From assembly GCA_934565415.1 (NCBI GenBank), contig CAKTHQ010000020.1, forward strand, positions 1 to 40,412: 40,412 nucleotides of DNA, in the 5' to 3' direction. Each line of letters begins with the position of its first letter. The stretch's first letter is position 1. Shown here piece by piece: positions 73 to 40,412 of the stretch. Origin of the DNA: an uncultured Oscillospiraceae bacterium. GTDB taxonomy: Bacteria; Bacillota; Clostridia; Oscillospirales; Oscillospiraceae. The notes under the pieces are model-generated. The model saw nothing but the letters and a program-made list of their open reading frames with translations, was not told where the DNA came from and ran no database searches. Made by a program: the position numbers and the translations under genes.

Positions 73-97
73 ATTCCAATTTGACGGAGTAATGGAT

Positions 98-541
98 ATG
101 AAAATCCGAGAAGTGAACGAGAATAAAAAGCGGTTTATATCATTATTGTTATTAGCTGATGAACAGGAGAGCATGGTTGATCGCTATCTTGAAAAAGGAA
201 CTATGTATGTGCTTGAAGACAATGATGTAAAAGCTGAATGTGTTGTCACCGATGAAGGTAACGAAATACTTGAAATTAAGAATATCGCAGTCGATCCGGA
301 AAATCAGGGAAAGGGCTATGGCAAAGCACTAATTGATTTTCTTGCCAGTAAATATGCAGATGAATATTCTGTTTTGCAAGTTGGAACAGGTGACAGTCCA
401 TTGACGATACCATTTTATGAAAAATGTGGATTTGTTCGTTCTCACAGGATCCCCAATTTCTTTACTGACAATTATGACCACCCAATTTATGAGGGCGGAG
501 TACAACTAATGGATATGGTATATTTGCAAAGACATATATAA
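98..541 (+). CDS. GNAT-family N-acetyltransferase
   Basis: This encodes a 147-residue acetyl-CoA-dependent N-acetyltransferase of the GNAT fold, predicted cytoplasmic. The central segment has a beta strand ending in IAVDPENQGKGYGKALI, the acetyl-CoA pyrophosphate-binding loop (Q/R-x-x-G-x-G/A type). It is followed by a helix and a C-terminal FYEKCGF segment typical of the family. Two in-frame ATGs exist at 92 and 98. The ACGGAG ribosome binding site (84-89) is only 2 bases from the first but 8 bases from the second, so I start at 98. The gene is clearly more AT-rich than the core genes after position 2430, which suggests acquisition. The substrate cannot be told from sequence. A strong terminator follows the stop. 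Confidence 0.85.
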   Translation: MKIREVNENKKRFISLLLLADEQESMVDRYLEKGTMYVLEDNDVKAECVVTDEGNEILEIKNIAVDPENQGKGYGKALIDFLASKYADEYSVLQVGTGDSPLTIPFYEKCGFVRSHRIPNFFTDNYDHPIYEGGVQLMDMVYLQRHI

Positions 542-558
542 CTTCCGGTTTATCGACT

Positions 559-596
559 AGCTCTCCCGGAAAACCTCTCCGGGAGAGCTGTTTTTT
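559..596 (+). terminator. Rho-independent terminator after the GNAT gene
   Basis: A perfect 12-bp stem (559-570 with 578-589) with a 7-base loop is followed by G and six T residues. It sits 18 bases after the GNAT stop. The T-run overlaps the stop codon (595-597, minus strand) of the spoIVB fragment, so it may once have separated two convergent genes. Confidence 0.9.
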
Positions 597-717
597 ACCC
601 CGCCGCCTCCAGCATATTCTCGATAAAGATCCCGTACCCCGCCGTCGGATCGTTCACCAGCACATGGGTCACGGCGCCGATGAGCTTGCCGTCCTGCAAA
701 ATGGGACTGCCGGACAC
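595..717 (-). pseudogene. spoIVB 3'-terminal fragment (SpoIVB C-terminus)
   Basis: Read on the minus strand, this encodes about 40 codons ending in TAA. The product matches the C-terminus of the intact SpoIVB at 2430-3392, including the [10 protein letters not shown] serine-protease motif and the [14 protein letters not shown] tail, with 35 of 38 aligned residues identical. The codons differ mostly at synonymous positions, so this fragment descends from a spoIVB under purifying selection in another lineage and is not a recent local duplication. Homology ends abruptly at about 717 and no start codon or N-terminal part is present. It cannot encode a working protease. I infer it is the displaced end of a former spoIVB allele or a fragment that came with imported DNA. 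Confidence 0.85.
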
Positions 718-785
718 GAGTGATTGTCATTATGGACAACACGACATGTTTGTATAGCCTTTTCATTTGTGCTGTTGAAAGCCAA

Positions 786-814
786 TTGCTTTCTTTTGCG
801 CTGTATGGTAAAAT
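786..814 (+). promoter_or_regulatory. Sigma-A-type promoter for the DUF1016 gene
   Basis: TTGCTT (786-791) and TAAAAT (809-814) are separated by 17 bases, and the inferred start codon is 50 bases downstream. The stretch 718-863 between the spoIVB fragment and this gene otherwise shows nothing I recognise. Confidence 0.5.
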
Positions 815-863
815 ATTCGGAGAAAAAGGTGCGTTTCATTTCATGAGAATGGAGGATTTGCAA

Positions 864-1874
864 ATGCTGATGAACAGTGGCGAGTACTTGGATTTGGTAC
901 AGAATATCAAGCAGGAAATCCAAAGTGCGCAATATAGGGCAGCGTTGAATGTCAACAGGGAACTGATATGCCTGTACTACGACATTGGGTCAGCCATCAA
1001 CGAGCATAAAACCTGGGGAAATAAATTTATTGAGAACCTTGCTACAGACATTAGGCTGGCATTCCCGGAAGCAAAAGGGTATTCGGTGCGAAATCTCAAG
1101 TATATGGCGAAATTTGCGCTCCGTTTTCCGAACTTCGAAATTGTGCAAGCGGCGCTTGCACAAATAACGTGGTATCATCACATTGCATTGATGGATAAGG
1201 TGAGGACAGCGGAGGAGCACATTTGGTATGCCAATAAAGCAGCTGGGAACGGGTGGTCACGCAATGTTTTGGTACACCAAATTGAGATAGGGCTCTATCA
1301 ACGCCAAGCGCTGGCTAAGAAAATAGCAAATTTTGAAGAACGCTTACCCTCCCCGCAAAGTGAGCTTGCCGCACAGACGATGAAAGACCCCTATGTGTTT
1401 GACTTTATCCCGTTTAAAGAAGATATGGTGGAACGGGATATTGAGCAGGCGCTTGTGAAAGATGTTACAAAGCTCCTGCTGGAATTGGGGACGGGATTTG
1501 CTTTTCTTGGGAACCAATATCACCTGAATGTGGGTGGAGATGATTTTTACATTGATTTGCTGTTTTACAATCTGAATCTTCGCTGTTATGTGGTGATCGA
1601 ACTGAAAACCGGTGAATTCAAGCCGGAATATGCTGGGCAGCTGAATTTCTATCTTTCAGCGGTAGATGGGATTCTAAAAAAAGAAAATGATCATCCCTCT
1701 ATTGGCTTGCTGCTGTGTAAGAGCAAAAATGACCTGGTGGCGGAATATGCACTCAAGGATATGTCCAAGCCCATGGGCGTCAGTGCGTATAAAGTAACCA
1801 ACAGCCTGCCGGAAGAACTGCAACGGCAACTGCCATCGATTGAAGACATTGAAAAACGGATTCAAAAGGAATAA
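864..1874 (+). CDS. DUF1016/YhcG-family PD-(D/E)XK nuclease protein
   Basis: This encodes 336 residues, the usual length for DUF1016 (YhcG) proteins. The N-terminal half is the helical DUF1016_N region (conserved QIEIGLYQRQ-type segment). The C-terminal half is a PD-(D/E)XK nuclease fold with catalytic-type residues D231 (in YIDLLFY) and E246-x-K248 (in IELKTGE), so the active site looks intact. The frame stays open upstream to 720, but GGAGG at 851-855 lies 8 bases before the ATG at 864, which sets that start; ATGs at 843 and 849 are alternatives. The family is known from mobile islands and near restriction-modification loci, with a nucleic-acid role that is poorly defined. Here it stands without restriction genes, in an AT-rich segment bracketed by spoIVB repeats, which suggests a transferred cargo gene. 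Confidence 0.88.
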   Translation: MLMNSGEYLDLVQNIKQEIQSAQYRAALNVNRELICLYYDIGSAINEHKTWGNKFIENLATDIRLAFPEAKGYSVRNLKYMAKFALRFPNFEIVQAALAQITWYHHIALMDKVRTAEEHIWYANKAAGNGWSRNVLVHQIEIGLYQRQALAKKIANFEERLPSPQSELAAQTMKDPYVFDFIPFKEDMVERDIEQALVKDVTKLLLELGTGFAFLGNQYHLNVGGDDFYIDLLFYNLNLRCYVVIELKTGEFKPEYAGQLNFYLSAVDGILKKENDHPSIGLLLCKSKNDLVAEYALKDMSKPMGVSAYKVTNSLPEELQRQLPSIEDIEKRIQKE

Positions 1875-1965
1875 TTGCACAGGAATGTCACTTGCCATCC
1901 CTGTATTCATAAAACGAAATTTGCAGAGATGGTAAATTCTAAAACAAAATTTATGGAGGCCTTGT

Positions 1966-2370
1966 ATGAAGAAGATTGTATATATAATGCTATGTATTCT
2001 GCTTGTATGTAGTTTGAGTGCTTGTGGTGGAAATGTCAGTAAAGTTAATACGCATAATGTAGATTCTGAAATTTATTCAGAAGAGGATATTAACGCTGCT
2101 ATTGACACCATAAAAAAAGAATTTAAGAACGATTGGAAAGGATGTACTCTTACAGAGATTTATTATGCAGGAGATGACAGTTCTAAAGACCATCAAGATT
2201 GGGCAGATAGGAACAATGCAGATGAAGTCATTGTTTTGCAGTCTACATTCGATGTTGATTCATCTGGAGGAGATGGTTCTTTGAATCCAAATAGTACATA
2301 CAATGGTTGGAATTGGATTTTAGTTAGAACAAATGGCGGACAATGGCAACATGTTGATCATGGATATTAA
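1966..2370 (+). CDS. Small secreted lipoprotein, possibly DUF4829-like
   Basis: This encodes 134 residues. A lysine start, a hydrophobic stretch (residues 4-16) and a lipobox LSAC with the lipidated Cys at about residue 20 show export and membrane anchoring by the lipoprotein pathway. The mature part is polar, with a single later Cys, and ends in a W-rich segment (NGWNWILV, GGQWQHVDHGY). This pattern recalls small Clostridia proteins annotated as DUF4829, but I am not certain of that assignment. GGAGG precedes the ATG by 9 bases. The gene is strongly AT-rich, like the DUF1016 gene 91 bases upstream, and shares its likely foreign origin. No function is assigned. Confidence 0.75.
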   Translation: MKKIVYIMLCILLVCSLSACGGNVSKVNTHNVDSEIYSEEDINAAIDTIKKEFKNDWKGCTLTEIYYAGDDSSKDHQDWADRNNADEVIVLQSTFDVDSSGGDGSLNPNSTYNGWNWILVRTNGGQWQHVDHGY

Positions 2371-2373
2371 GTC

Positions 2374-2552
2374 AAATTCCAGTTTATAGAACCGGCGCTC
2401 TCGGAAAACCTTCCAAGAGCGCCGGTTGTTCATCCTGCCTGGAGCATATTTTCAATAAAAATCCCATATCCACAAGTTGGATCGTTGACGAGAACATGGG
2501 TCACCGCCCCGACCAGTTTTCCGTCCTGGAGGATGGGCGAGCCCGACATCCC
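2374..2552. repeat. Right copy of the spoIVB-end direct repeat
   Basis: This is the partner of 541-717: lead-in, hairpin with AAAACC loop core, and the final codons of the intact spoIVB. In this copy homology continues uninterrupted into the full protease gene, so it is the resident or reconstituted end. Confidence 0.8.
2391..2426. terminator. Hairpin between convergent lipoprotein gene and spoIVB
   Basis: A perfect 11-bp stem (2391-2401 with 2416-2426) lies between two convergent stop codons. Neither side has a long T-run, so it is probably a weak bidirectional terminator. It corresponds in position and loop to the stronger hairpin at 559-589. Confidence 0.65.
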
Positions 2553-3392
2553 TTGCACAATGCCGCCGGTGCATTTGAGCAGCTCCGGGTCGGTGACCTT
2601 TAGAAGCATATTCCGATAGGTTTGCCGGTCTTTTGGATATAATTTCAGAATTTCCACAGAATACTCCTTGGGTGGGCCCTCCCGGACGGAGGCGAGGATG
2701 GTGGCGCTGCCGGTGCGTAAAGACTCCCAGCTTCCTACAGGCAGGGCGCGGCCGGGGAAGCCTTGGGCACATTTTCCCAGGATGCCCTGGGGAGTATTGC
2801 AGGTGATGGTGCCCAGGGGAATTTCCGAGGTGGCTTTGCCTTTTAAGAGACCGGGGGTGCCGGATTTTCCCATTTGGGCGGCTACCGGCTGGGCGGGGTA
2901 GATGCTGCCGCTTTTCAGGGGCAGAAGACAGTCTTTGCCGGTGCTGACCCCGTGGCCCAGGGCGCCGAAGGTATTGCTTTCCGGATCGTACCAGGTGACG
3001 GTGCCGATGCCGGTGATCCCCTGGCGCAGGTAGACCCCCAGCAGGGGCCGCCCGTTTTGCGCTTGAGGCTGAATTTCCAGGGTCATATCCTTGCTGCCCC
3101 GCCGGACGCCCAGCGTGGCGGTCCCGGTGCTGTTTTCCAGGGCTTTGGATACCTGGTCCGCCTCCGTAATGGGCTTGCCGTTGACGGAGCAGACCTCATC
3201 TCCGATCCGCAGCCCGGCGGCCTTGGCGTTTGCGCCGTACAGATCGTCAAAGGCTGCCACGGTGACGGTGCCGCTGCGAATTTCCAGCCCCACCAGGGTC
3301 CCTACGGGAACCAGCATATCCGCCGCCTGTGCAGAAAACGGCAGGATAAATACAAATAACAACAAGAAAATGCTGCTTAATTTTCGCTTCAT
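2430..3392 (-). CDS. spoIVB: SpoIVB peptidase (sporulation, sigma-K checkpoint)
   Basis: SpoIVB is a serine protease of family S55 secreted from the forespore into the intermembrane space, where it triggers processing of pro-sigma-K. The 320-residue product has a signal/anchor segment (residues 1-22), a PDZ domain (LRIGDEVCSVNGKPI, roughly residues 45-120) and the peptidase domain. That domain holds the FGALGHGVS histidine motif and the [12 protein letters not shown] serine motif. It is shorter than the about 426 residues of the Bacillus protein, mostly at the N-terminus. The frame is open further upstream, but AGGAGGG lies 6 bases before the ATG at 3392 and the hydrophobic signal starts there. 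The usual neighbours recN and spo0A are absent. A diverged copy of its 3' end lies at 595-717. Confidence 0.93.
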   Translation of the reverse strand: MKRKLSSIFLLLFVFILPFSAQAADMLVPVGTLVGLEIRSGTVTVAAFDDLYGANAKAAGLRIGDEVCSVNGKPITEADQVSKALENSTGTATLGVRRGSKDMTLEIQPQAQNGRPLLGVYLRQGITGIGTVTWYDPESNTFGALGHGVSTGKDCLLPLKSGSIYPAQPVAAQMGKSGTPGLLKGKATSEIPLGTITCNTPQGILGKCAQGFPGRALPVGSWESLRTGSATILASVREGPPKEYSVEILKLYPKDRQTYRNMLLKVTDPELLKCTGGIVQGMSGSPILQDGKLVGAVTHVLVNDPTCGYGIFIENMLQAG

Positions 3393-3520
3393 GCGTTGCC
3401 CTCCTTTCTTTCTCCGCCTTGTTAATATGCCGCGGTGGTTTGGCTTTAACCGCTGAAAAAGTCGAAAATTCTGGGCGAGGGAGGGAAATGTGGAAAAAAT
3501 TGGAAATGTGTGGTATGATG

Positions 3521-3653
3521 AATAAGAGTTTGTGGGGACTATCCCACGGATGAACGTACAGGCCCTCCTCTTGCCCCTCCATGCAGGAGGGGGCAAGGGG
3601 ATTTCTCCCGCCCGCCGGTGCCTACCATTTACCCCCACAACTCCCCATTTATT
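3521..3653. repeat. Palindromic interspersed repeat, copy 1
   Basis: This intergenic element has ends in inverted orientation (TTTGTGGGG at the left, CCCCACAACTCCCCATTT at the right) and an inner near-palindrome CCCCTCC-ATGCA-GGAGGGG. It shares end sequences, the inner palindrome and a GCCGGTxCCTACC block with 9901-10025. It has no coding capacity that looks real and no transposase. It accounts for most of the 281-base gap between spoIVB and msrC. Confidence 0.65.
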
Positions 3654-3673
3654 AAATTACAGAAGGAGTCTCT

Positions 3674-4132
3674 ATGAACAACTTTACAACCGATTACCTG
3701 GCCCTCACCCAGCAGATCAAATCCCTTACCGAGGATGTGCCCTACCTTACCGCCAACCTGGCCAATGTATCGGCCCTTCTTTGGCAGAGTGTGCCGGGGC
3801 TGAACTGGGCGGGGTTTTACTGCATGACAGACGGGGCCCTGGTGCTGGGGCCCTTCCAGGGGAAGCCGGCCTGTATTCGTATCCCTGTGGGCAAAGGCGT
3901 TTGCGGCGGGGCGGCGGAGCAGGGGAAGACCCTCAGGGTGGAAAATGTCCATGAATTCCCCGGGCACATTGCCTGCGACGGGGCATCCAACTCGGAAATC
4001 GTCGTTCCCCTGTGGAAAAACGGAGAGCTCTGGGGCGTATTGGATATGGACAGCCCCCATTTTGGTAGATTCACCCCGGCGGACCAGGAAGGATTGGAGC
4101 AGGCGGCAAGGGCCATTGAAGGCTTCCTGTAA
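3674..4132 (+). CDS. msrC: Free methionine-(R)-sulfoxide reductase (GAF domain)
   Basis: This enzyme reduces free Met-(R)-sulfoxide in the cytoplasm, using a GAF-fold domain with redox cysteines. The 152-residue product is one GAF domain with C67, C77 and C101. The spacings of 10 and 24 residues are the same as in characterised fRMsr enzymes, within the motifs PACIRIPVGKGVCG and FPGHIACDG. The conserved SEIVVPL segment follows. An AGGAG site 7 bases before the ATG fixes the start. It lies between the palindromic repeat and the Fe-S operon. An oxidative-stress link with that operon is plausible but not shown. No clear terminator follows; the next promoter begins about 50 bases after its stop. 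Confidence 0.92.
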   Translation: MNNFTTDYLALTQQIKSLTEDVPYLTANLANVSALLWQSVPGLNWAGFYCMTDGALVLGPFQGKPACIRIPVGKGVCGGAAEQGKTLRVENVHEFPGHIACDGASNSEIVVPLWKNGELWGVLDMDSPHFGRFTPADQEGLEQAARAIEGFL

Positions 4133-4178
4133 CCTTTTTTGGCAATCTCAGTCAATCAGTGCTAACAATTTACATCTG

Positions 4179-4232
4179 CCTATTGACAAGGTAGGTAAAA
4201 TATGGTATGCTCCCTACCGAGATAGTAGGGAG
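4179..4232 (+). promoter_or_regulatory. Two candidate IscR/Rrf2 operator dyads
   Basis: Two dyads share the same arms and spacing, CCTA-N9-TAGG. The first (4179-4195) overlaps the -35 box. The second (4210-4232, extended to seven perfect arm bases) starts at the -10 box and covers the expected transcription start. Their centres are 34 bases apart. Because the operon ends with an Rrf2/IscR regulator, autoregulation by Fe-S status is the likely role; that is inference. Confidence 0.55.
4183..4211 (+). promoter_or_regulatory. Sigma-A promoter of the iscS-iscU-iscR operon
   Basis: TTGACA (4183-4188) and TATGCT (4206-4211) are separated by an ideal 17 bases. The first gene starts 57 bases after the -10 box. 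Confidence 0.8.
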
Positions 4233-4268
4233 ACTGTGTCTCCAGGAACCATAGGAGGTTTTTCATTT

Positions 4269-5456
4269 ATGACTGTTTACGCGGACAATGCGGCAACCAC
4301 CAAGATGAGCCAGACGGCCATCGATGCCATGCTGCCCTATATGACCACCATTTACGGCAACCCTTCCAGCCTGCACTCCGTAGGCCAGCGGGCCAAGGAG
4401 GCTCTGGACGCCGCCCGGGAGACCGTGGCCCAGTGCCTGGGCTGCGAGCCCCGGGAGATCATCTTCACCTCCGGCGGATCCGAGGCCGACAACCAAGCCA
4501 TCATTTCCGCCGCCCGGCTGGGGGAGAAGAAGGGGAAGAAGCACATCATTTCCACTGCCTTTGAGCATCATGCCGTGCTGCACACCCTGAAGAAGCTGGA
4601 AAAGGAAGGCTTTGAGGTGGAGCTGCTGGATGTACGCCAGGGCCACAACATCACCGCCCAGCAGGTGAAGGATGCCATCCGCCCCGATACCTGCCTGGTG
4701 ACCACCATGTATGCCAACAACGAGATCGGCTCCATTCTGCCCATTGCGGAGATCGGCGCCGTTTGTAAGGCCGCCGGTGTGCCCTTCCACACCGATGCCG
4801 TTCAGGCCGTGGGCCATGTCCACATCAACGTGAAGGAACAGAACATCGATATGCTGAGCCTGTCCGGCCACAAGTTCCACGGCCCCAAGGGCATTGGCGC
4901 CCTGTATGTCCGGAAGGGCTTCCCCCTGGTGAACATCATTGAGGGCGGCGCCCAGGAGCGGGGCAAGCGGGCAGGTACCGAGAATATCCCCGCCATCTGC
5001 GGCATGGCTGCTGCCATGAAGGAAGCCTGCGACCACATCGACGAGAACGCCGCCAAGGTCTCCGCCATGCGGGACAAGCTGATCGAGGGCCTAAGCAAGA
5101 TCCCCCACAGCGCCGTGAACGGTGATTTGAAAAACCGGCTCCCCGGCAACGTGAGCTTCTGCTTTGAGGGCATCGAGGGCGAGAGCCTGCTGCTGCTGCT
5201 GGACCAGAAGGGCATCTGCGCCTCCTCCGGTTCCGCCTGCACCTCCGGCTCCCTGGATCCCAGCCATGTGCTGCTGGCCATCGGCCGGGTCCACGATGTG
5301 GCCCACGGCTCCCTGCGCCTGAGCCTGTGCGAGTGGAACACCATGGAGGAAGTGGACTACATTCTGAAGGCCGTTCCCGAAGTGGTGGAGTACCTGCGGG
5401 GTATGTCCCCCGTGTGGAGAGACCTGCAGACCGGTAAGAGAGAATATATTCTGTAA
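4269..5456 (+). CDS. iscS: Cysteine desulfurase (NifS/IscS type)
   Basis: This PLP enzyme takes sulfur from L-cysteine and passes it as a persulfide for Fe-S cluster building. The product has 395 residues, normal for class I desulfurases. Visible are the N-terminal YADNAATT motif, the PLP-binding lysine K202 in SLSGHKFHGPKG, and the persulfide cysteine C324 in the flexible loop SSGSACTSG. The frame is open upstream to 3945, but AGGAGG (4253-4258) and the family N-terminus set the ATG at 4269. It is followed after 17 bases by the scaffold gene iscU and then by the regulator, forming a minimal Fe-S assembly operon without chaperones or ferredoxin. Confidence 0.95.
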   Translation: MTVYADNAATTKMSQTAIDAMLPYMTTIYGNPSSLHSVGQRAKEALDAARETVAQCLGCEPREIIFTSGGSEADNQAIISAARLGEKKGKKHIISTAFEHHAVLHTLKKLEKEGFEVELLDVRQGHNITAQQVKDAIRPDTCLVTTMYANNEIGSILPIAEIGAVCKAAGVPFHTDAVQAVGHVHINVKEQNIDMLSLSGHKFHGPKGIGALYVRKGFPLVNIIEGGAQERGKRAGTENIPAICGMAAAMKEACDHIDENAAKVSAMRDKLIEGLSKIPHSAVNGDLKNRLPGNVSFCFEGIEGESLLLLLDQKGICASSGSACTSGSLDPSHVLLAIGRVHDVAHGSLRLSLCEWNTMEEVDYILKAVPEVVEYLRGMSPVWRDLQTGKREYIL

Positions 5457-5473
5457 TTTGGAGGAAACAAAAA

Positions 5474-5902
5474 ATGGCACTTTACAGTGAAAAAGTTATG
5501 GATCATTTCACCCATCCCCGGAATGTTGGCGTCATTGAGGATGCCAACGGCGTAGGCGAGGTTGGCAACGCCAAGTGCGGCGACATCATGAAGATCTACC
5601 TGAAAATCGAGGACGAAATCATCAAGGATGTGAAGTTCGAGACCTTCGGCTGCGGCAGCGCCATTGCCTCTTCTTCCATGGCCACCGAGATGATCAAGGG
5701 CAAGTCCATCCACGAGGCCATGGCCCTGACCAATAAGGCCGTTGCTGAGGCCCTGGACGGCCTGCCCGCCCACAAGCTGCATTGCTCCGTCCTGGCGGAA
5801 GAGGCCATCAAGAAGGCCCTGAAGGACTACTATGACCGCTCCGGCCTGCCCTACGACGAGAAGGACTTCCCGGACTGCGAGCATTGCGACCACTGCGAAT
5901 GA
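5474..5902 (+). CDS. iscU: Fe-S cluster scaffold (IscU/NifU N-domain type)
   Basis: This is the scaffold on which Fe-S clusters are built with sulfur from the upstream desulfurase. Its 142 residues carry the three cluster cysteines C35 (NAKCGD, with D37), C60 (FGCGSA) and C104 (LHCSVLAEEA). After the canonical domain there is a short acidic tail ending in DCEHCDHCE, adding three cysteines at the very C-terminus. A GGAGG site precedes the ATG. The stop overlaps the ribosome entry of iscR: only one base separates the two genes. Confidence 0.95.
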   Translation: MALYSEKVMDHFTHPRNVGVIEDANGVGEVGNAKCGDIMKIYLKIEDEIIKDVKFETFGCGSAIASSSMATEMIKGKSIHEAMALTNKAVAEALDGLPAHKLHCSVLAEEAIKKALKDYYDRSGLPYDEKDFPDCEHCDHCE

Positions 5903-5903
5903 T

Positions 5904-6314
5904 ATGATCGTATCCACCAAAGGACGCTATGCCCTGCGGGTTATGCTGAGTTTAGCCCAGCGGGGCGGGGAAGAGTACATCCCCATTAAGGAGATTGCGG
6001 AGGAAGAGGGCATTTCCCTCAAGTATCTGGAATCCATTATGACCCAGCTCAGCAAGGGCGGCCTGGTAGATGCCCTCCACGGCAAAGGCGGCGGCTATCG
6101 CCTGAACCGGAAGCCGGAGGAATACACCGTGGGCAGCATCCTGAAGCTTACCGAGGGCGGCCTGGCTGTGGTGTCCTGCACCGCGGAGGGCCCCTCTGCC
6201 TGCTCCCGCAGCGCCTGCTGCGAGACAAGGCCCATGTGGGACAAGCTGGACAAGATGATTAATGACTTCTTCGAAGGGATCACATTGGCGGATCTTTTGA
6301 AGGAGAATGAGTAA
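5904..6314 (+). CDS. iscR: Rrf2-family Fe-S-responsive regulator (IscR-like)
   Basis: This is a DNA-binding regulator that senses an Fe-S cluster and usually controls Fe-S biogenesis genes. The 136-residue product starts MIVSTKGRYALRVML, the standard Rrf2 N-terminus. It has a winged helix (IKEIAEEEGISLKYLESIM and the GKGGGYRL wing) and cysteines C92, C100, C105 and C106 as candidate cluster ligands. The frame is open upstream from 5832, but the family N-terminus begins at 5904. No ribosome binding site is visible; the ATG lies one base after the iscU stop, so translational coupling is likely. Having the regulator last in the operon differs from the iscR-first order of enterobacteria. Confidence 0.92.
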   Translation: MIVSTKGRYALRVMLSLAQRGGEEYIPIKEIAEEEGISLKYLESIMTQLSKGGLVDALHGKGGGYRLNRKPEEYTVGSILKLTEGGLAVVSCTAEGPSACSRSACCETRPMWDKLDKMINDFFEGITLADLLKENE

Positions 6315-6321
6315 AATAAGT

Positions 6322-6355
6322 CGGCCCGAGCAGGCGTTGCTCGGGCCGGTTTTTT
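6322..6355 (+). terminator. Terminator of the isc operon
   Basis: A perfect 11-bp GC-rich stem (6322-6332 with 6338-6348), a 5-base loop and a G-T6 tract lie 8 bases after the iscR stop. The convergent envelope operon ends 6 bases further on. Confidence 0.92.
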
Positions 6356-6360
6356 ATGCC

Positions 6361-7890
6361 TTAATAGAAGTTTTCTTTGTAGAAGGTGGATTGTTTTTGC
6401 AGCTCTGTGCTCAGGTAGTCGTAGCCCAGCTCCTCCAGAAGAGTGGGGGCATCGGAGAACAGGTCCACACCCATACCAAGCCGGTTGCCGGGGATCTCAA
6501 AGCCCATGGCAGACAGAATGGTGGGGAACATATCCAGCTGGGTGAACTGCCGGCCCTCGGTGGGCAGCACCGGGGTCTTGGCGGCGTTCAGGATGCAGTT
6601 GTAGATTCTGCGGTTTTCAGAAGGGACGCCTTCTACTAGGTCAGTTTCCATCCGGGTGTGGTCGCCCAAAAGAACGATGGTGGTGTTTTCGTAGAAGGGC
6701 TGCTGGCTGCACCAGGTGAGGAATTCCTGAAGCTGGCGGTTTGTGCAGTCCAGAACGGTGGGGAGCACCTCGCCGTTGAATTTCTCCGGCTCACAGTTTT
6801 CGCAGATATAGCCGTGAGAGGGGTGCGTATCTACAGTCAGCATGGTCAGATTGAAGGGTTCGTCCAGACTGGAAAGCCGGAGCAGCTCATTCTGGGCAAT
6901 TTGAAACAACTTTTGATCCTCAAATCCCCACCAAACGAAGTAATCCGGTGGAACAGTACCCTTCTTGCGGGCTGTGTAAAGGTCATAGATTTCATAATTC
7001 CCATGCTGGGAAAAGTATTGCCCGCGGCCGCCGAAGGTTGCATCGGATCCGCACATGAATTCCTGATTGTAACCGTTTTCATCCAGAATTTTTCCCAGAG
7101 TTTGCAGCTTTTCAGCAAAGCTGCCGTAGAATGTCAGGTCGTTATTGTTCAGAGGAAAGTTAAAGGGAATGCCGGAGGTGCTGCCAACCAAAGCGGAAAA
7201 TGTCCAGGCAGTGTTGGGAAGATTTCGGGCACCGCCAAGAACGGAATCGCTGGAGCCGAAGGAGGTGTTTTCCAAGGCAAGCTCCGTCAGGTAGGGAATG
7301 TAGTTCTGCGTGTTGGCACCGCCATGGGCTTCGTCCGCAAAGGTTGTTTCCATGCTTTCCAGGTAGATACAGAGTAAGTTCCGCTTTGTATTTGCGACGA
7401 TTTCCACATCGCTGGGCATCACATAGTAGTCGTCATAAATGTTTGTCCTGGATAGATTGACTTTGACATAATCAACGACATTGTAGGTGGCCTGCACATA
7501 ATAGCAGGTCATCAGCAGGGTCCCTAGACTGACGCTGCCAACCAGCACACGACTCAATGCACGGGAAGAAAGGGAGAAACATTTCTTCCAAAGTCTGATA
7601 TTAAGCCAGAAGGAGACCCGGTTCCATTTTTGGACAAAAAAGGTAAGCGCTGTAAAGCATAGCAAACCAATCAAGAGCTTTGGCAGACAAAAGAGAAGCG
7701 CACTGGATACCAAATCCCCATTGACACCCGTAAGGGGGGCGCGAATGGTGAACATCATTTCAGCCAGTTCTACATGAAAGGTTTTGAAGACCCAAATGGC
7801 AACTACAGATAGGGTTAGGCTGAGCACAAAAATGACCCAGGCCAGAATGAGAAAGAACGAAGGCTTGCGGCCTGTATTTTTTGTTTTCAT
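6361..7890 (-). CDS. Sulfatase-fold phosphoglycerol transferase (OpgB/LtaS type)
   Basis: This encodes 509 residues: an N-terminal membrane part with about three to four hydrophobic helices (residues 12-170), then an alkaline-phosphatase/sulfatase-fold domain facing outside. Metal and catalytic motifs resemble OpgB (MdoB) more than staphylococcal LtaS: CIYLESMETTF near the start of the domain, a PNTAWTFSALVGS segment with the expected nucleophile Thr, THPSHGY, and LLGDHTRM. Such enzymes move glycerol phosphate from phosphatidylglycerol onto a glycan or teichoic acid. The ATG at 7890 overlaps the stop of the small membrane gene upstream by four bases (ATGA), so the two are coupled. The acceptor is unknown; the GtrII-type gene in the same operon suggests a glucosylated surface polymer. 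Confidence 0.85.
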   Translation of the reverse strand: MKTKNTGRKPSFFLILAWVIFVLSLTLSVVAIWVFKTFHVELAEMMFTIRAPLTGVNGDLVSSALLFCLPKLLIGLLCFTALTFFVQKWNRVSFWLNIRLWKKCFSLSSRALSRVLVGSVSLGTLLMTCYYVQATYNVVDYVKVNLSRTNIYDDYYVMPSDVEIVANTKRNLLCIYLESMETTFADEAHGGANTQNYIPYLTELALENTSFGSSDSVLGGARNLPNTAWTFSALVGSTSGIPFNFPLNNNDLTFYGSFAEKLQTLGKILDENGYNQEFMCGSDATFGGRGQYFSQHGNYEIYDLYTARKKGTVPPDYFVWWGFEDQKLFQIAQNELLRLSSLDEPFNLTMLTVDTHPSHGYICENCEPEKFNGEVLPTVLDCTNRQLQEFLTWCSQQPFYENTTIVLLGDHTRMETDLVEGVPSENRRIYNCILNAAKTPVLPTEGRQFTQLDMFPTILSAMGFEIPGNRLGMGVDLFSDAPTLLEELGYDYLSTELQKQSTFYKENFY

Positions 7891-38270: not shown

Positions 38271-39458
38271 TTAACCGGCGCAGGCGGCAGCCTGCTCGAA
38301 TTGTTTCACGGCGGAGACAAGGGAAATGTCTGTAACGTGTACATAGCGATCCATGGTGGTTTTGATGCTTGCGTGACCGAGCAGCCGTTGCAGGACTTTT
38401 GGCATAACGCCCCGCTCGATGGCACGGGTGGCATAGGTGTGCCGCAGGGCGTGCATACAAAATCGTCGGATGCCGGCCTCGTCGCAAAGCTTATACAGGT
38501 GCGTATCGTAGGAGCTGTTTTTGGCAGGTTCGCCGGTGCGGTAGTTGATAAAAACCAGGTCCCGCATACACAGGTATTTGGTCTGACCCGTTCGACGATC
38601 CACATATTCCAGAACCTGCGACAGCAGCTCGGATTCTTTGCGGGTATGCCGTTCATCGTAGCACGATTTTAAGATGTTGTACGCCTGATTCGTCAGAGGG
38701 ATGGTTCGGTAGCTGCTGGCGGTCTTTGGAGGGCCAGCCCGCCAAACGCCTTCTCCGTGGCGATATTCCAGAGTCTTGCTGACGGTAAGTGTCCGCTTTT
38801 TCCAATCGATGGCATCCCGGGTGAGGCCAATCATTTCCGAGGTTCGCAAACCGGTTTCCAACAGAAGCGCATATTGCCTGTAGTTGTGGGAGCGTTTCGC
38901 TGCCTCCAGAAATTTTTTCTGTTCTTCCACAGTCAGGAATTTGATGTCATCCACAGCCCGAACGGGTTTTGTATAGCGAACACCGTCCATGGGATGCTTA
39001 ATAAGCATATCATTCATAACTGCGGCCCGGAACATGGTTCCCATGGTGATGTATGCCTGACGAATGGTGGAACCTGCGTAGGTCGTTTCCATTTGGTTCA
39101 GGACGATTTTGCAATGCATGGGTTTGACATCACACAGACGCATATTCCCGATGACTGGTTGAATATTGATTCGATACCGTTCCCGGTAGTTCCGTTTTGT
39201 GTTTGAAGCTAGATCTACAATCAGATTGTCAATCCAGAACGAAAACCAGGAATCTACTGTCATATCGGAGGAAGCGGTAACCAGACCATGTTTCTCCTCA
39301 TATTGTATATCAGCCAGCCAGTTACGGGCTTCCGGGAGTGTATCAAAATGCTTTTCCCTGCGGGAACCGTTTTTGGAAGTAAATCTGGCGGTGTACTTTC
39401 CGTCCTTTCTTTGGCAGATACCTTTGCCGCATTCTTTGCCTTTTAGGTTTTTGCCCAT
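38271..39458 (-). CDS. int: Tyrosine-type site-specific integrase (Tn916-like)
   Basis: This encodes 395 residues. The N-terminus (KGICQRKDGKYTARFTSKNG) is an AP2-like arm-binding domain, followed by a SAM-like core-binding domain (about 65-165) and the catalytic domain. Active-site residues are visible: Arg in TGLRTSEMIGL (about 204), Lys in PPKTASSYRT (about 245), HALRHTYATR (about 336), His in LLGHASIKTT (about 360) and the nucleophile Tyr in MDRYVHVTD (about 371), so it looks active. AAGGAG precedes the ATG. An excisionase gene lies just upstream in the same orientation. No transfer or phage genes are seen within the window, so the rest of the element is lost or lies beyond the right edge. 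Confidence 0.94.
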   Translation of the reverse strand: MGKNLKGKECGKGICQRKDGKYTARFTSKNGSRREKHFDTLPEARNWLADIQYEEKHGLVTASSDMTVDSWFSFWIDNLIVDLASNTKRNYRERYRINIQPVIGNMRLCDVKPMHCKIVLNQMETTYAGSTIRQAYITMGTMFRAAVMNDMLIKHPMDGVRYTKPVRAVDDIKFLTVEEQKKFLEAAKRSHNYRQYALLLETGLRTSEMIGLTRDAIDWKKRTLTVSKTLEYRHGEGVWRAGPPKTASSYRTIPLTNQAYNILKSCYDERHTRKESELLSQVLEYVDRRTGQTKYLCMRDLVFINYRTGEPAKNSSYDTHLYKLCDEAGIRRFCMHALRHTYATRAIERGVMPKVLQRLLGHASIKTTMDRYVHVTDISLVSAVKQFEQAAACAG

Positions 39459-39509
39459 TCGTGAACTCCTTTCCTGAGTACAGGAAACGTAGTTTCACCA
39501 CGACGCTCT

Positions 39510-39538
39510 AATATACCATAAAAGCGTGAGTTTTTCAA
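39510..39538 (-). promoter_or_regulatory. Promoter of int
   Basis: On the minus strand TTGAAA (39538-39533) and TATATT (39515-39510) are separated by 17 bases, 51 bases before the int ATG. Confidence 0.65.
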
Positions 39539-39553
39539 TATCTTTTGGGCTTT

Positions 39554-39590
39554 TTGGTGCGCACCAATTTGACATTTCCGGCACCATTTT
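39554..39590 (-). repeat. GGTGCG sites between xis and int, with a 14-bp palindrome
   Basis: TTGGTGCGCACCAA (39554-39567) is a perfect palindrome and AAAATGGTGCCGG (39590-39578) is a further relative. They match the sites at 38230-38270 and lie just upstream of the int promoter, so integrase or excisionase binding here could also control int expression. Confidence 0.6.
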
Positions 39591-39609
39591 ATGGAGAAAT
39601 CGTTTGGTT

Positions 39610-39831
39610 TCAAATGGCAGCCATTCCTTCAATGTATTCTTCAAAGGCTTTCCGTTTTACCAGTTTTTTCGTACCCACAAACAGCACGAAGGGGCAGTTG
39701 GGGCGCTTCAGCATTTCATCGATTTTGTTGATTCCAATGTTGCTGTACTCCGCTGCTTCCCGGATAGAGAGCAGCATTTTTCGGTCAATCGGCAGGAGCA
39801 TTGCCTGCTGTTCTTGATTTGTCATAGGCAA
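39610..39831 (-). CDS. xis: Excisionase (Tn916 Xis-like)
   Basis: This encodes 73 residues with a winged-helix excisionase pattern: LLSIREAAEYSNIGINKIDEML followed by FVLFVGTKKLVKRKAFEEYIEG. Such proteins bend DNA at the element ends and direct integrase to excision. The start is probably TTG at 39831, with AAAGG 9 bases upstream; the ATG at 39825 is possible but 15 bases from that site. It precedes int by 151 bases on the same strand. The 142 bases upstream (39832-39973) hold no convincing promoter. Confidence 0.85.
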   Translation of the reverse strand: MPMTNQEQQAMLLPIDRKMLLSIREAAEYSNIGINKIDEMLKRPNCPFVLFVGTKKLVKRKAFEEYIEGMAAI

Positions 39832-39973
39832 AAATAATATCCTTTCTTTTTACAATCGGCCAAGATTTTCGCTGGCTATCGCACGATGATTTCCATTTGT
39901 GCTAATATTGTTCTATACGTTAGCAAGAAAGTAATTCAAAAGCTGCCACAGTATCAGTTCCTCAACCTTTTAT

Positions 39974-40285
39974 TTAGGATTCACAACACACAATCATGTT
40001 TCTGCATTCTTTCTGTAAATCGGAAAAGATACCCCACATTGGTTTACAGTATTCCTGTAATTCATTTGGCATCGACTGGAACCCTCTTATCTGAATTGTC
40101 CTGCTCTCATTCTCATCAAAGTATCCATCGATGCAATCCCGAACTGCATCCCCGTTTTTTCCGCAGCACGCTGGAAATCCGAAACTTTTTCGAATGCGTT
40201 CATGGAGATCATCCAGATATTTGCATCCAGAAAAGTCAACAACAATGGGATTATCTGTTACCAATGTATATGCATAATAGTCCAT
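39974..40285 (-). CDS. Barstar-like ribonuclease inhibitor
   Basis: This encodes 103 residues. The segment VVDFSGCKYLDDLHERIRKS, followed by PACCGKNGDAVRDCIDG, matches barstar (G-x-x-x-x-x-x-x-L-H, then P-x-x-Y/C-G-x-N-x-D-A-x-x-D-C). Barstar inhibits barnase-type RNases with an acidic helix, and the DGYFDENESR region could supply it. CGGAGG lies 7 bases before the ATG at 40285. The longer open frame to 40351 runs into the tRNA and is not coding. No RNase toxin gene is adjacent, so it is an orphan immunity or antitoxin-like gene. The tRNA-Trp terminator lies only 12 bases upstream of its start codon, leaving no room for an own promoter. Confidence 0.75.
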   Translation of the reverse strand: MDYYAYTLVTDNPIVVDFSGCKYLDDLHERIRKSFGFPACCGKNGDAVRDCIDGYFDENESRTIQIRGFQSMPNELQEYCKPMWGIFSDLQKECRNMIVCCES

Positions 40286-40296
40286 TTTCACACCTC

Positions 40297-40334
40297 CGAA
40301 AAAAGAAAACCACCGAACAAATCTTGTTCGGTGG
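40297..40334 (-). terminator. Terminator after tRNA-Trp
   Basis: A perfect 11-bp stem (40310-40320 with 40324-40334), 3-base loop, then on the minus strand GTTTTCTTTTTT. It lies 4 bases after the encoded CCA end of the tRNA and just before the barstar ribosome binding site. Confidence 0.9.
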
Positions 40335-40337
40335 CTT

Positions 40338-40412
<75 letters not shown>

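What the first reader, a model, noticed from the sequence alone, without database searches (positions are those of the whole stretch)
541..2552. spoIVB-anchored cassette: a foreign gene pair framed by two diverged spoIVB 3' ends
A 123-base fragment encoding the SpoIVB C-terminus (595-717), with its own terminator, repeats the end of the intact spoIVB at 2430. The two encode nearly the same residues (35 of 38) but differ at most synonymous sites (84 of 114 bases equal by hand count), so one came from another species. The DUF1016 and lipoprotein genes lie exactly between. This resembles integration in which imported DNA carries a replacement gene end and rebuilds the target, as integrating elements do at tRNA or sporulation genes. 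The break falls in the GMSGSP catalytic motif. The GNAT gene with its terminator looks like an earlier cassette at the same site. No integrase is present, so homologous recombination within spoIVB is the main alternative.
Basis: partly seen in the sequence, partly recalled or inferred. Interest (0 to 1): 0.75.

Follow-up and report, generated by a model that had tools for sequence, protein, structure and literature searches.

The report
Gene cassettes stacked behind spoIVB
In a number of gut spore-forming bacteria, small foreign gene cassettes are stacked at one fixed point in the sporulation gene spoIVB, separated by leftover copies of that gene's end, and the same point is the landing site of mobile elements that carry three serine recombinases.

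Summary
The window holds an intact spoIVB and, 1.8 kb away, a displaced spoIVB end only 73-75% identical in DNA. Seventeen of 81 spoIVB loci, window included, have extra spoIVB ends, up to four behind the intact gene. The intervals between ends are about 1 kb, mostly AT-rich, with varied cargo: nuclease, barnase/barstar, GNAT, Fic, HTH. Displaced ends switch to non-spoIVB sequence at one base, RTG|(TCN/AGC)GG; 35 of 44 are preceded by a motif of fixed geometry, TTGTCC-N17-TG|. The same motif|end junction terminates mobile elements with three tandem large serine recombinases, and in one near-complete chromosome (G326) a 94.7-kb element splits spoIVB there, its two ends giving a 52-bp palindromic attP centred on TG. 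So site-specific recombination made the junction. How recombinase-less cassettes move is inferred; accretion onto such elements is favoured. Against the simple reading that each cassette brings its own spoIVB end: the one testable left edge has 97% identical cargo but 82% identical ends, some ends are mosaic, and no recombinase of this clade was seen in 18 genomes with displaced ends or the motif. A new variant of serine-recombinase island arrays.

The parts
2430..3392 (-). intact spoIVB (PDZ + peptidase S55)
   Evidence: PF05580 E 7.6e-67, PF17820
2430..2546 (-). current spoIVB 3' end, from codon S of SGSP to the stop; the TG before it is 2547-2548
   Evidence: repeat of 595-714; junction by alignment with other loci
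2390..2427 (.). hairpin behind the current end
   Evidence: 17-nt arms, 94% complementary; partial match only to L001
1966..2370 (+). cargo gene 2: 134-aa lipoprotein-like protein, no curated family above cut-off
   Evidence: lipoprotein by eye (signal peptide ending LSAC)
843..1874 (+). cargo gene 1: DUF1016/YhcG PD-(D/E)XK nuclease, candidate defence family PDC-S02
   Evidence: PF17761, PF06250; PADLOC E 2.7e-145
715..741 (-). P motif: 27-nt half attachment site, TGTTGTCC-N17-TG
595..714 (-). displaced spoIVB 3' end
   Evidence: 90.7% identical to L001's intact end
558..590 (+). terminator-like hairpin; T-run on the + strand
   Evidence: 96% identical to the hairpin behind L001 spoIVB
92..541 (+). 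GNAT acetyltransferase, GC 0.36; possibly part of an older cassette
   Evidence: PF13508, PF00583; its far side is off the window

Best explanation
The window shows one unit of a site-specific cassette array at codons GM|SGSP of spoIVB. SHOWN: the array type recurs in Oscillospiraceae and other Clostridia; displaced ends begin at one base and 35 of 44 are preceded by a motif P of constant geometry, TTGTCC-N17-TG|; the same P|spoIVB-end junction ends mobile elements whose last genes are three tandem large serine recombinases (LSRs); in G326 such an element splits spoIVB at this base and its two ends form a 52-bp palindrome around TG. INFERRED: the triplet integrates by attP x attB (attB = the intact spoIVB codons) and excises by attL x attR. 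A cassette keeps attB intact on its left and an attR (P|end) on its right. An incoming element can insert beside it, leave through the far attR and carry the cassette along (accretion), and in a new host leave through the near attR and deposit it. Each round moves an old spoIVB end one step away, where it decays, while the proximal end keeps SpoIVB whole. Homologous exchange among the repeated ends then shuffles them.
For: Arrays: 17 of 81 loci, 19 arrays with 29 intervals, median 1,049 bp, proximal displaced end better preserved in 13 of 14 pairs. Fixed junction and geometry; the shared module is P plus the end only. Motif sites directly followed by a spoIVB end: 13 of 13 and 8 of 9 in 400 unselected genomes. 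LSR triplets ending at P|end. Same element, different hosts: L094/L095 identical for 6,586 positions up to TG|, then 23 of 71 differ. Empty and occupied site: L035/L099, 97.9% over 6,003 nt starting at TG. Split gene and palindromic attP in G326. L095 has a further LSR behind its P|end, 48% identical to the middle LSR of the triplet, as a composite would.
Against: Cassette movement itself was not seen. End and cargo do not share a history in the one testable left edge (97.4% against 82.5%); 4 of 20 within-array pairs of ends are mosaic. In 18 genomes with displaced ends or the motif, 15 have some serine recombinase but none is above 39% identical to the spoIVB-clade LSR3, and the arrays' own loci have none of the clade. 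Of 14 LSR3 relatives (47% identity or more) with sequence behind the gene, 6 lack a spoIVB end there. Only one split spoIVB was found in 400 genomes.
Confidence: 0.7

Rival explanations
1. Homologous recombination alone: DNA carrying a spoIVB end inserts by crossing over within the repeated end; P is a passenger left by an old element.
For: Mosaic ends in L034, L017, L058, L015; the L001/window block stays near-identical for about 44 nt beyond TG and then diverges inside the end; cargo shared by L015 and L055 starts at the stop codon.
Against: Junctions would scatter, but 35 of 44 lie at TG with P at fixed spacing; P is conserved between unrelated cargo and is half of an LSR attP.
Confidence: 0.15
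2. Remnants: cassettes are right-hand leftovers of LSR elements that lost their left part in place, spoIVB being repaired each time with an end from a relative.
For: Distal ends decay; no spoIVB-clade LSR3 in the 18 genomes checked; end and cargo can differ in history.
Against: Interval sizes cluster near 1 kb (median 1,049 bp) and several hold complete one- or two-gene modules such as barnase with barstar; one cargo is 97.4% identical in hosts whose SpoIVB are 46% identical.
Confidence: 0.2
3. Free cassette circles: excised circles with a P|end site insert at spoIVB through LSRs acting in trans, as integron cassettes do.
For: The unit left after such an event, attB-type on the left and P|end on the right, is what is seen; arrays lack their own recombinase.
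Against: It needs an attR-type x attB exchange, which is not a standard serine-integrase reaction (general knowledge); no circle was looked for or seen.
Confidence: 0.2

Closest known systems
Dehalococcoides ssrA genomic islands (PMC3146451, passages read)
   Same: Tandem islands behind one essential gene, separated by repeats of its 3' end that are preceded by a conserved motif; serine recombinases; 15 islands without an integration module; accretion proposed there.
   Different: RNA gene and 20-bp repeats; DsiA/DsiB pair, not a triplet. Here a protein gene is cut before its SGSP motif, the displaced ends are about 117 nt of coding sequence, and units are about 1 kb.
Serine-integrase triplets of streptococcal ICEs (PMC4701971, passages read)
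   Same: Three serine integrase genes in tandem, same orientation, at one end of the element; very short (2-8 bp) direct repeats.
   Different: Targets there are mutT, traG and hsdM; cassette arrays are not in the passages I saw.
CIMEs and accretion (PMC5704250, passages read)
   Same: Units without integration genes that keep att sites and stand in tandem with other elements.
   Different: Those are decayed ICEs/IMEs with attL and attR; here the left site is an intact attB inside a functional gene and units are integron-cassette sized.
Sporulation-gene intervening elements: skin in sigK, gin in gerE (PMC5595907, passages read)
   Same: Serine-recombinase elements in a sporulation gene; gin has three recombinase genes; the G326 element splits spoIVB likewise.
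   Different: In those the gene is broken until excision. In the window and the arrays spoIVB is whole.
Integron gene cassettes (general knowledge)
   Same: Small units in series, each with a recombination module, varied cargo including toxin-antitoxin genes and acetyltransferases, oldest apparently farthest from the entry point.
   Different: Serine, not tyrosine, recombinases at this site; half of a palindromic attP plus a coding gene end instead of a folded attC; cargo on both strands; no recombinase of this clade beside the arrays.

Membership tests
CIME (cis-mobilisable element) | no integration gene of its own | tested here: met
   Window interval 715-2546 encodes a nuclease and a lipoprotein-like protein only; an LSR3 profile found none of the clade in L001-L080, the window and L180-L185
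CIME (cis-mobilisable element) | flanked by att sites of a related element | tested here: met
   attB-type codons on the left, P|end (attR-type) on the right
CIME (cis-mobilisable element) | moved in cis by an element accreted next to it | not testable with these tools
   L095 is a possible composite; no movement was observed
Triplet large-serine-recombinase element | three LSR genes in tandem at the element end | tested here: met
   For the autonomous relatives: full triplets in L094, L095, L098, L099, L141, L144, L149, L229; L097 = L148 is cut by its contig end. Not met by the window's cassette
Integron cassette array | tyrosine integrase IntI beside the array | tested here: inconclusive
   Elements at this site carry serine recombinases. 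IntI itself was not searched for
Integron cassette array | attC sites that act as folded single strands | tested here: inconclusive
   The module is half of a 52-bp double-strand palindrome plus a gene end; no attC search was run
Sporulation-gene intervening element | splits a sporulation gene | tested here: not met
   Met for G326, not met for the window, whose spoIVB is whole
Sporulation-gene intervening element | excises during sporulation to restore the gene | not testable with these tools
   needs cells
Dehalococcoides ssrA island | integration in ssrA by DsiA/DsiB, a CcrAB-like pair | tested here: not met
   Target is spoIVB; enzymes come as triplets; CcrA/B/C models match only far below their cut-offs

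The most novel reading that the evidence does not exclude
Gut Clostridia possess an integron-like gene-cassette capture system run by large serine recombinases. The platform is the SGSP codons of spoIVB, and each cassette carries a module of about 147 bp (half attP plus a spare spoIVB end) that regenerates both the host gene and the landing site, so that cassettes can be stacked repeatedly and exchanged between genera.
Probability: 0.3. Interest if true: 0.9.

Novelty: new variant of a known kind. Interest (0 to 1): 0.72.

Why it matters
It marks a recurring place where cultured and uncultured gut spore formers hold foreign genes, some of toxin-antitoxin and candidate defence type. It gives exact attachment sites (attB, attP, attL, attR) and candidate recombinases that can be tested in laboratory strains. 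It would show how a serine-recombinase system can use a protein-coding gene repeatedly without breaking it, and it makes displaced gene ends an ordered record of past insertions. The repeats may also explain contig breaks behind spoIVB (7 of 80 loci end within 500 nt of the gene).

Tried and rejected
Rejected: recent tandem duplication within the genome (the window's ends are 72.8% identical). Rejected as sole cause: homologous recombination in spoIVB (fixed junction). My own note, that the spoIVB end travels with the cargo, was written from a 93.6% figure over 468 nt; split it into 82.5% end and 97.4% cargo, so I no longer hold it as shown.

Led nowhere: type A motif in viral contigs (none); attP palindromes and attL junctions in viral contigs (5 and 2 hits, no LSR3-like ORF in the stretches held); attL pattern in 400 genomes (9 places in 9 genomes; G326 is the only exact match, the other 8 I judge chance from their letters); LSR3 profile in 300 genomes (85 genomes match at 1e-80 or better, so such recombinases are common; one stands out, G326; regions of 8 further matches showed no spoIVB end); the window's cassette in 400 genomes (28 genomes match; G001 shares the nuclease part at 95%; the other long nuclease matches are 69-75%; the lipoprotein part matches G376 at 74%; the rest are short). 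Dropped before counts: L045, L074 and L184r from the mosaic test (decayed ends; 11 of the 14 arrays used); L175-L179 were not checked.

In print: nothing on spoIVB as an attachment site was seen (open-licence full text only; most subscription papers are not held).
Full report
OBSERVATION. The first 3.4 kb of the window hold, on the minus strand, spoIVB (2430-3392; PF05580) and a displaced spoIVB end (595-714). The ends are 75% identical over 112 nt. A DUF1016/YhcG nuclease gene and a small lipoprotein-like gene lie between. GC is 0.44 and 0.34 for these two ORFs, 0.36 for the GNAT gene beyond, and 0.59 for spoIVB. No whole genome is held for the window.

IT RECURS. With the window, 17 of 81 have extra spoIVB C-terminal ends, up to four behind the intact gene (L006). 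At a stricter cut-off 15 of 80 do; of 64 with at least 3 kb behind the gene, 12 do; 7 of 80 contigs end within 500 nt of the gene. One carrier, L001, is titled Pseudoflavonifractor sp. MSJ-30 and not marked as a metagenome assembly. With two loci found later, 19 arrays have 29 intervals between successive ends: median 1,049 bp, range 186-7,055. One interval (L077) is too short for a cargo value; of the other 28, cargo is AT-richer than the 6 kb upstream in 27, the exception (L183) lacking a true chromosome side. Of 14 ordered pairs of displaced ends within an array, the proximal one scores higher in 13, as expected if new units enter next to spoIVB.

CARGO. Twenty cassette proteins were scanned against Pfam: three barnase-type ribonucleases, two barstars, and one each of GNAT, zeta/CPT-like kinase, Phd/YefM antitoxin, Fic, SPFH/Band 7, HTH, DUF1275 and BspA-type LRR; one sub-threshold hit; six with no family. 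Of ten proteins scanned against PADLOC, three had hits: the window's nuclease (candidate defence family PDC-S02) and two from the 7-kb interval of L001 (a PDC-S01 protein and a type IIG restriction-methylation protein); seven had none.

THE JUNCTION. Intact and displaced ends switch at RTG|(TCN or AGC)GG. To the right both are spoIVB. To the left intact genes read CARGGNATG, displaced ends a 27-nt motif of two related types, TGTTGTCCNTAATGNCAATCACTCGTG and TTTTGTCC....CTTGACA....TG. TTGTCC stands 17 nt before TG in 33 of 46 script rows; leaving out one duplicate and one intact gene and correcting two indels, in 35 of 44. Of the other nine, seven have lost the start of the end and two have a diverged motif. 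Compared with 20 other sites, the window's site has mean identity 0.28-0.38 from -60 to -31, 0.61-0.84 from -30 to +119, and 0.22-0.35 beyond: the shared module is P plus the spoIVB end. In 400 genomes of one family the type A motif (up to 1 mismatch) occurs 9 times in 8 genomes, with no hit for the reversed control; 8 of 9 are followed at once by a spoIVB end. In 44 genomes picked because they hold spoIVB loci it occurs 13 times in 9 genomes (up to 2 mismatches), 13 of 13 followed by an end, some of them frame-shifted. Three genomes are in both samples.

THE RECOMBINASES. A degenerate pattern for the conserved peptide [11 protein letters not shown] gave 5 viral-collection loci; blastn of the window's site against phage records gave 13 records, most of them weak. 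L094, L095, L097, L098 and L099 have tandem LSR genes running up to P|spoIVB end (Pfam for L099). L096 and L100-L103 instead hold a longer spoIVB match, probably bacterial DNA. An LSR3 alignment (A1) found 48 viral-collection loci. Of 19 at 47% identity or more, 14 have at least 95 nt behind LSR3 and 8 of these have a spoIVB end there; L135, L136, L137, L139, L140 and L142 do not. Of 24 checked loci at 40% identity or less, none has one behind the gene, though two of them (L153, L165) end too soon to tell. L094 and L095 are identical for 6,586 positions up to TG| and differ at 23 of the next 71; L147, L148 and L149 share the last 60 nt of one element followed by three different spoIVB ends. 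L148 is the same contig as L097. L099 and L035 (Firmicutes CAG:176, whole spoIVB) are 97.9% identical over 6,003 nt starting at TG: an occupied and an empty site.

A SPLIT GENE. Among 300 family genomes, 85 have some match to the LSR3 profile at 1e-80 or better, and one stands far out (G326, E 2.2e-220; next 1.8e-114). In its 3.16-Mb contig spoIVB matches up to residue 283 and the rest lies 94.7 kb away, behind three LSRs and P and before an ORF that I read as spo0A. The left junction reads CAGGGCATG|GTAGTGAGTTATAATAGGGACAACT. The two element ends together give AGTTGTCCC, 16 nt, TG, 16 nt, GGGACAACT: a 52-bp site with perfect 9-bp arms, the usual shape of a large serine integrase attP (general knowledge). 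The window's P motif has the sequence type and spacing of its left half. That the Ser of SGSP is the catalytic residue is recalled; an inactive SpoIVB in G326 until excision is inference.

WHERE THE ENDS COME FROM. The window's displaced end and hairpin match L001's intact end (90.7%) and hairpin (96%); the current end has no hit above about 83%, and its hairpin matches L001 only in part. L001 carries the same nuclease-P block at 94.2% over 979 nt, while a 2.6-kb stretch beside spoIVB is 83% and the spoIVB region 69% identical. So the two ends have different histories. Metagenome proteins P0005 and P0006 differ at two residues before the junction and at two after it, C/A and Q/E, which are also among the differences between the window's two ends. 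Against a fixed bond between end and cargo: L015 and L055 share cargo at 97.4% over 349 nt starting at the stop codon, while the ends before it match at 99 of 120 positions and the DNA before TG at 14 of 58; their SpoIVB are 46% identical. Four of 20 within-array pairs of ends (L034, L017, L058, L015) are mosaic by a run test at p < 0.05, against 17 of 305 between arrays. Homologous exchange between ends therefore happens after or during insertion.

MECHANISM. The favoured reading uses only standard serine-integrase reactions. An LSR element inserts at the intact codons (attB) beside a cassette and can leave through the near or the far attR. Leaving through the far one takes the cassette along; leaving through the near one in another host deposits it. 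L095, with a triplet, P|end and a further LSR of the middle type behind it (48%), may be such a composite. This step is inferred. Against it, no spoIVB-clade LSR3 was seen in 18 genomes with displaced ends or the motif, although 15 of them have more distant serine recombinases. Free circles acting in trans, in-place remnants, and homologous recombination are the rivals.

COMPARISON. The nearest described case is the ssrA island array of Dehalococcoides (PMC3146451, passages). Serine-integrase triplets are known from streptococcal ICEs with other targets (PMC4701971, passages). CIMEs and accretion: PMC5704250 (passages). Sporulation genes split by serine-recombinase elements, including gerE with three recombinase genes: PMC5595907 (passages). 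PMC6814731 (passages) concerns three separate recombinases of a C. difficile island, not a triplet. I file the window's cassette as a CIME-like unit of a new array system, not as an integron.

LIMITS. Most loci are metagenome assemblies; the edges rest on several independent contigs, one locus not marked as a metagenome assembly and one near-complete chromosome. Which of the three LSRs acts, and which enzyme serves type A sites, is unknown (L144, with a near type A motif, is the best lead). The GNAT gene may or may not be a second cassette.

Noticed in passing
window 38271-40412: A tyrosine-integrase-like ORF (38271-39458, minus) and a barstar-like ORF (39974-40351, minus) next to a tRNA gene (40341-40412, minus) in low-GC DNA: looks like a separate tRNA-integrated element. 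Families read by eye from the translations; tRNA.
   Followed up: no
L006 12808-13389, L034 827-1414 and 2313-2861: Cassette barnase-type ribonucleases carry an N-terminal stretch that matches Phage_Mu_F (PF04233); two of the three matches are below that family's cut-off.
   Followed up: no
L007 13934-14367, L017 11347-11780: Two spoIVB ends whose first third is replaced by another sequence, 84% identical between the two genomes.
   Followed up: no
L007 14380-14620, L008 3281-3521, L017 13760-13952: A small conserved ORF (61-87 aa where called) behind the last spoIVB end in several genomes, perhaps the native downstream gene.
   Followed up: no
G326 element, L229 and L244: The 94.7-kb element that splits spoIVB begins with ParA/ParB-like ORFs (read by eye).
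   Followed up: partly
L194-L195 (IMG/VR contig of L141): A triplet-LSR element with RecD2-like helicase, YqaJ recombinase and VWA/AAA proteins among 10 proteins scanned; phage or conjugative nature not settled.
   Followed up: partly
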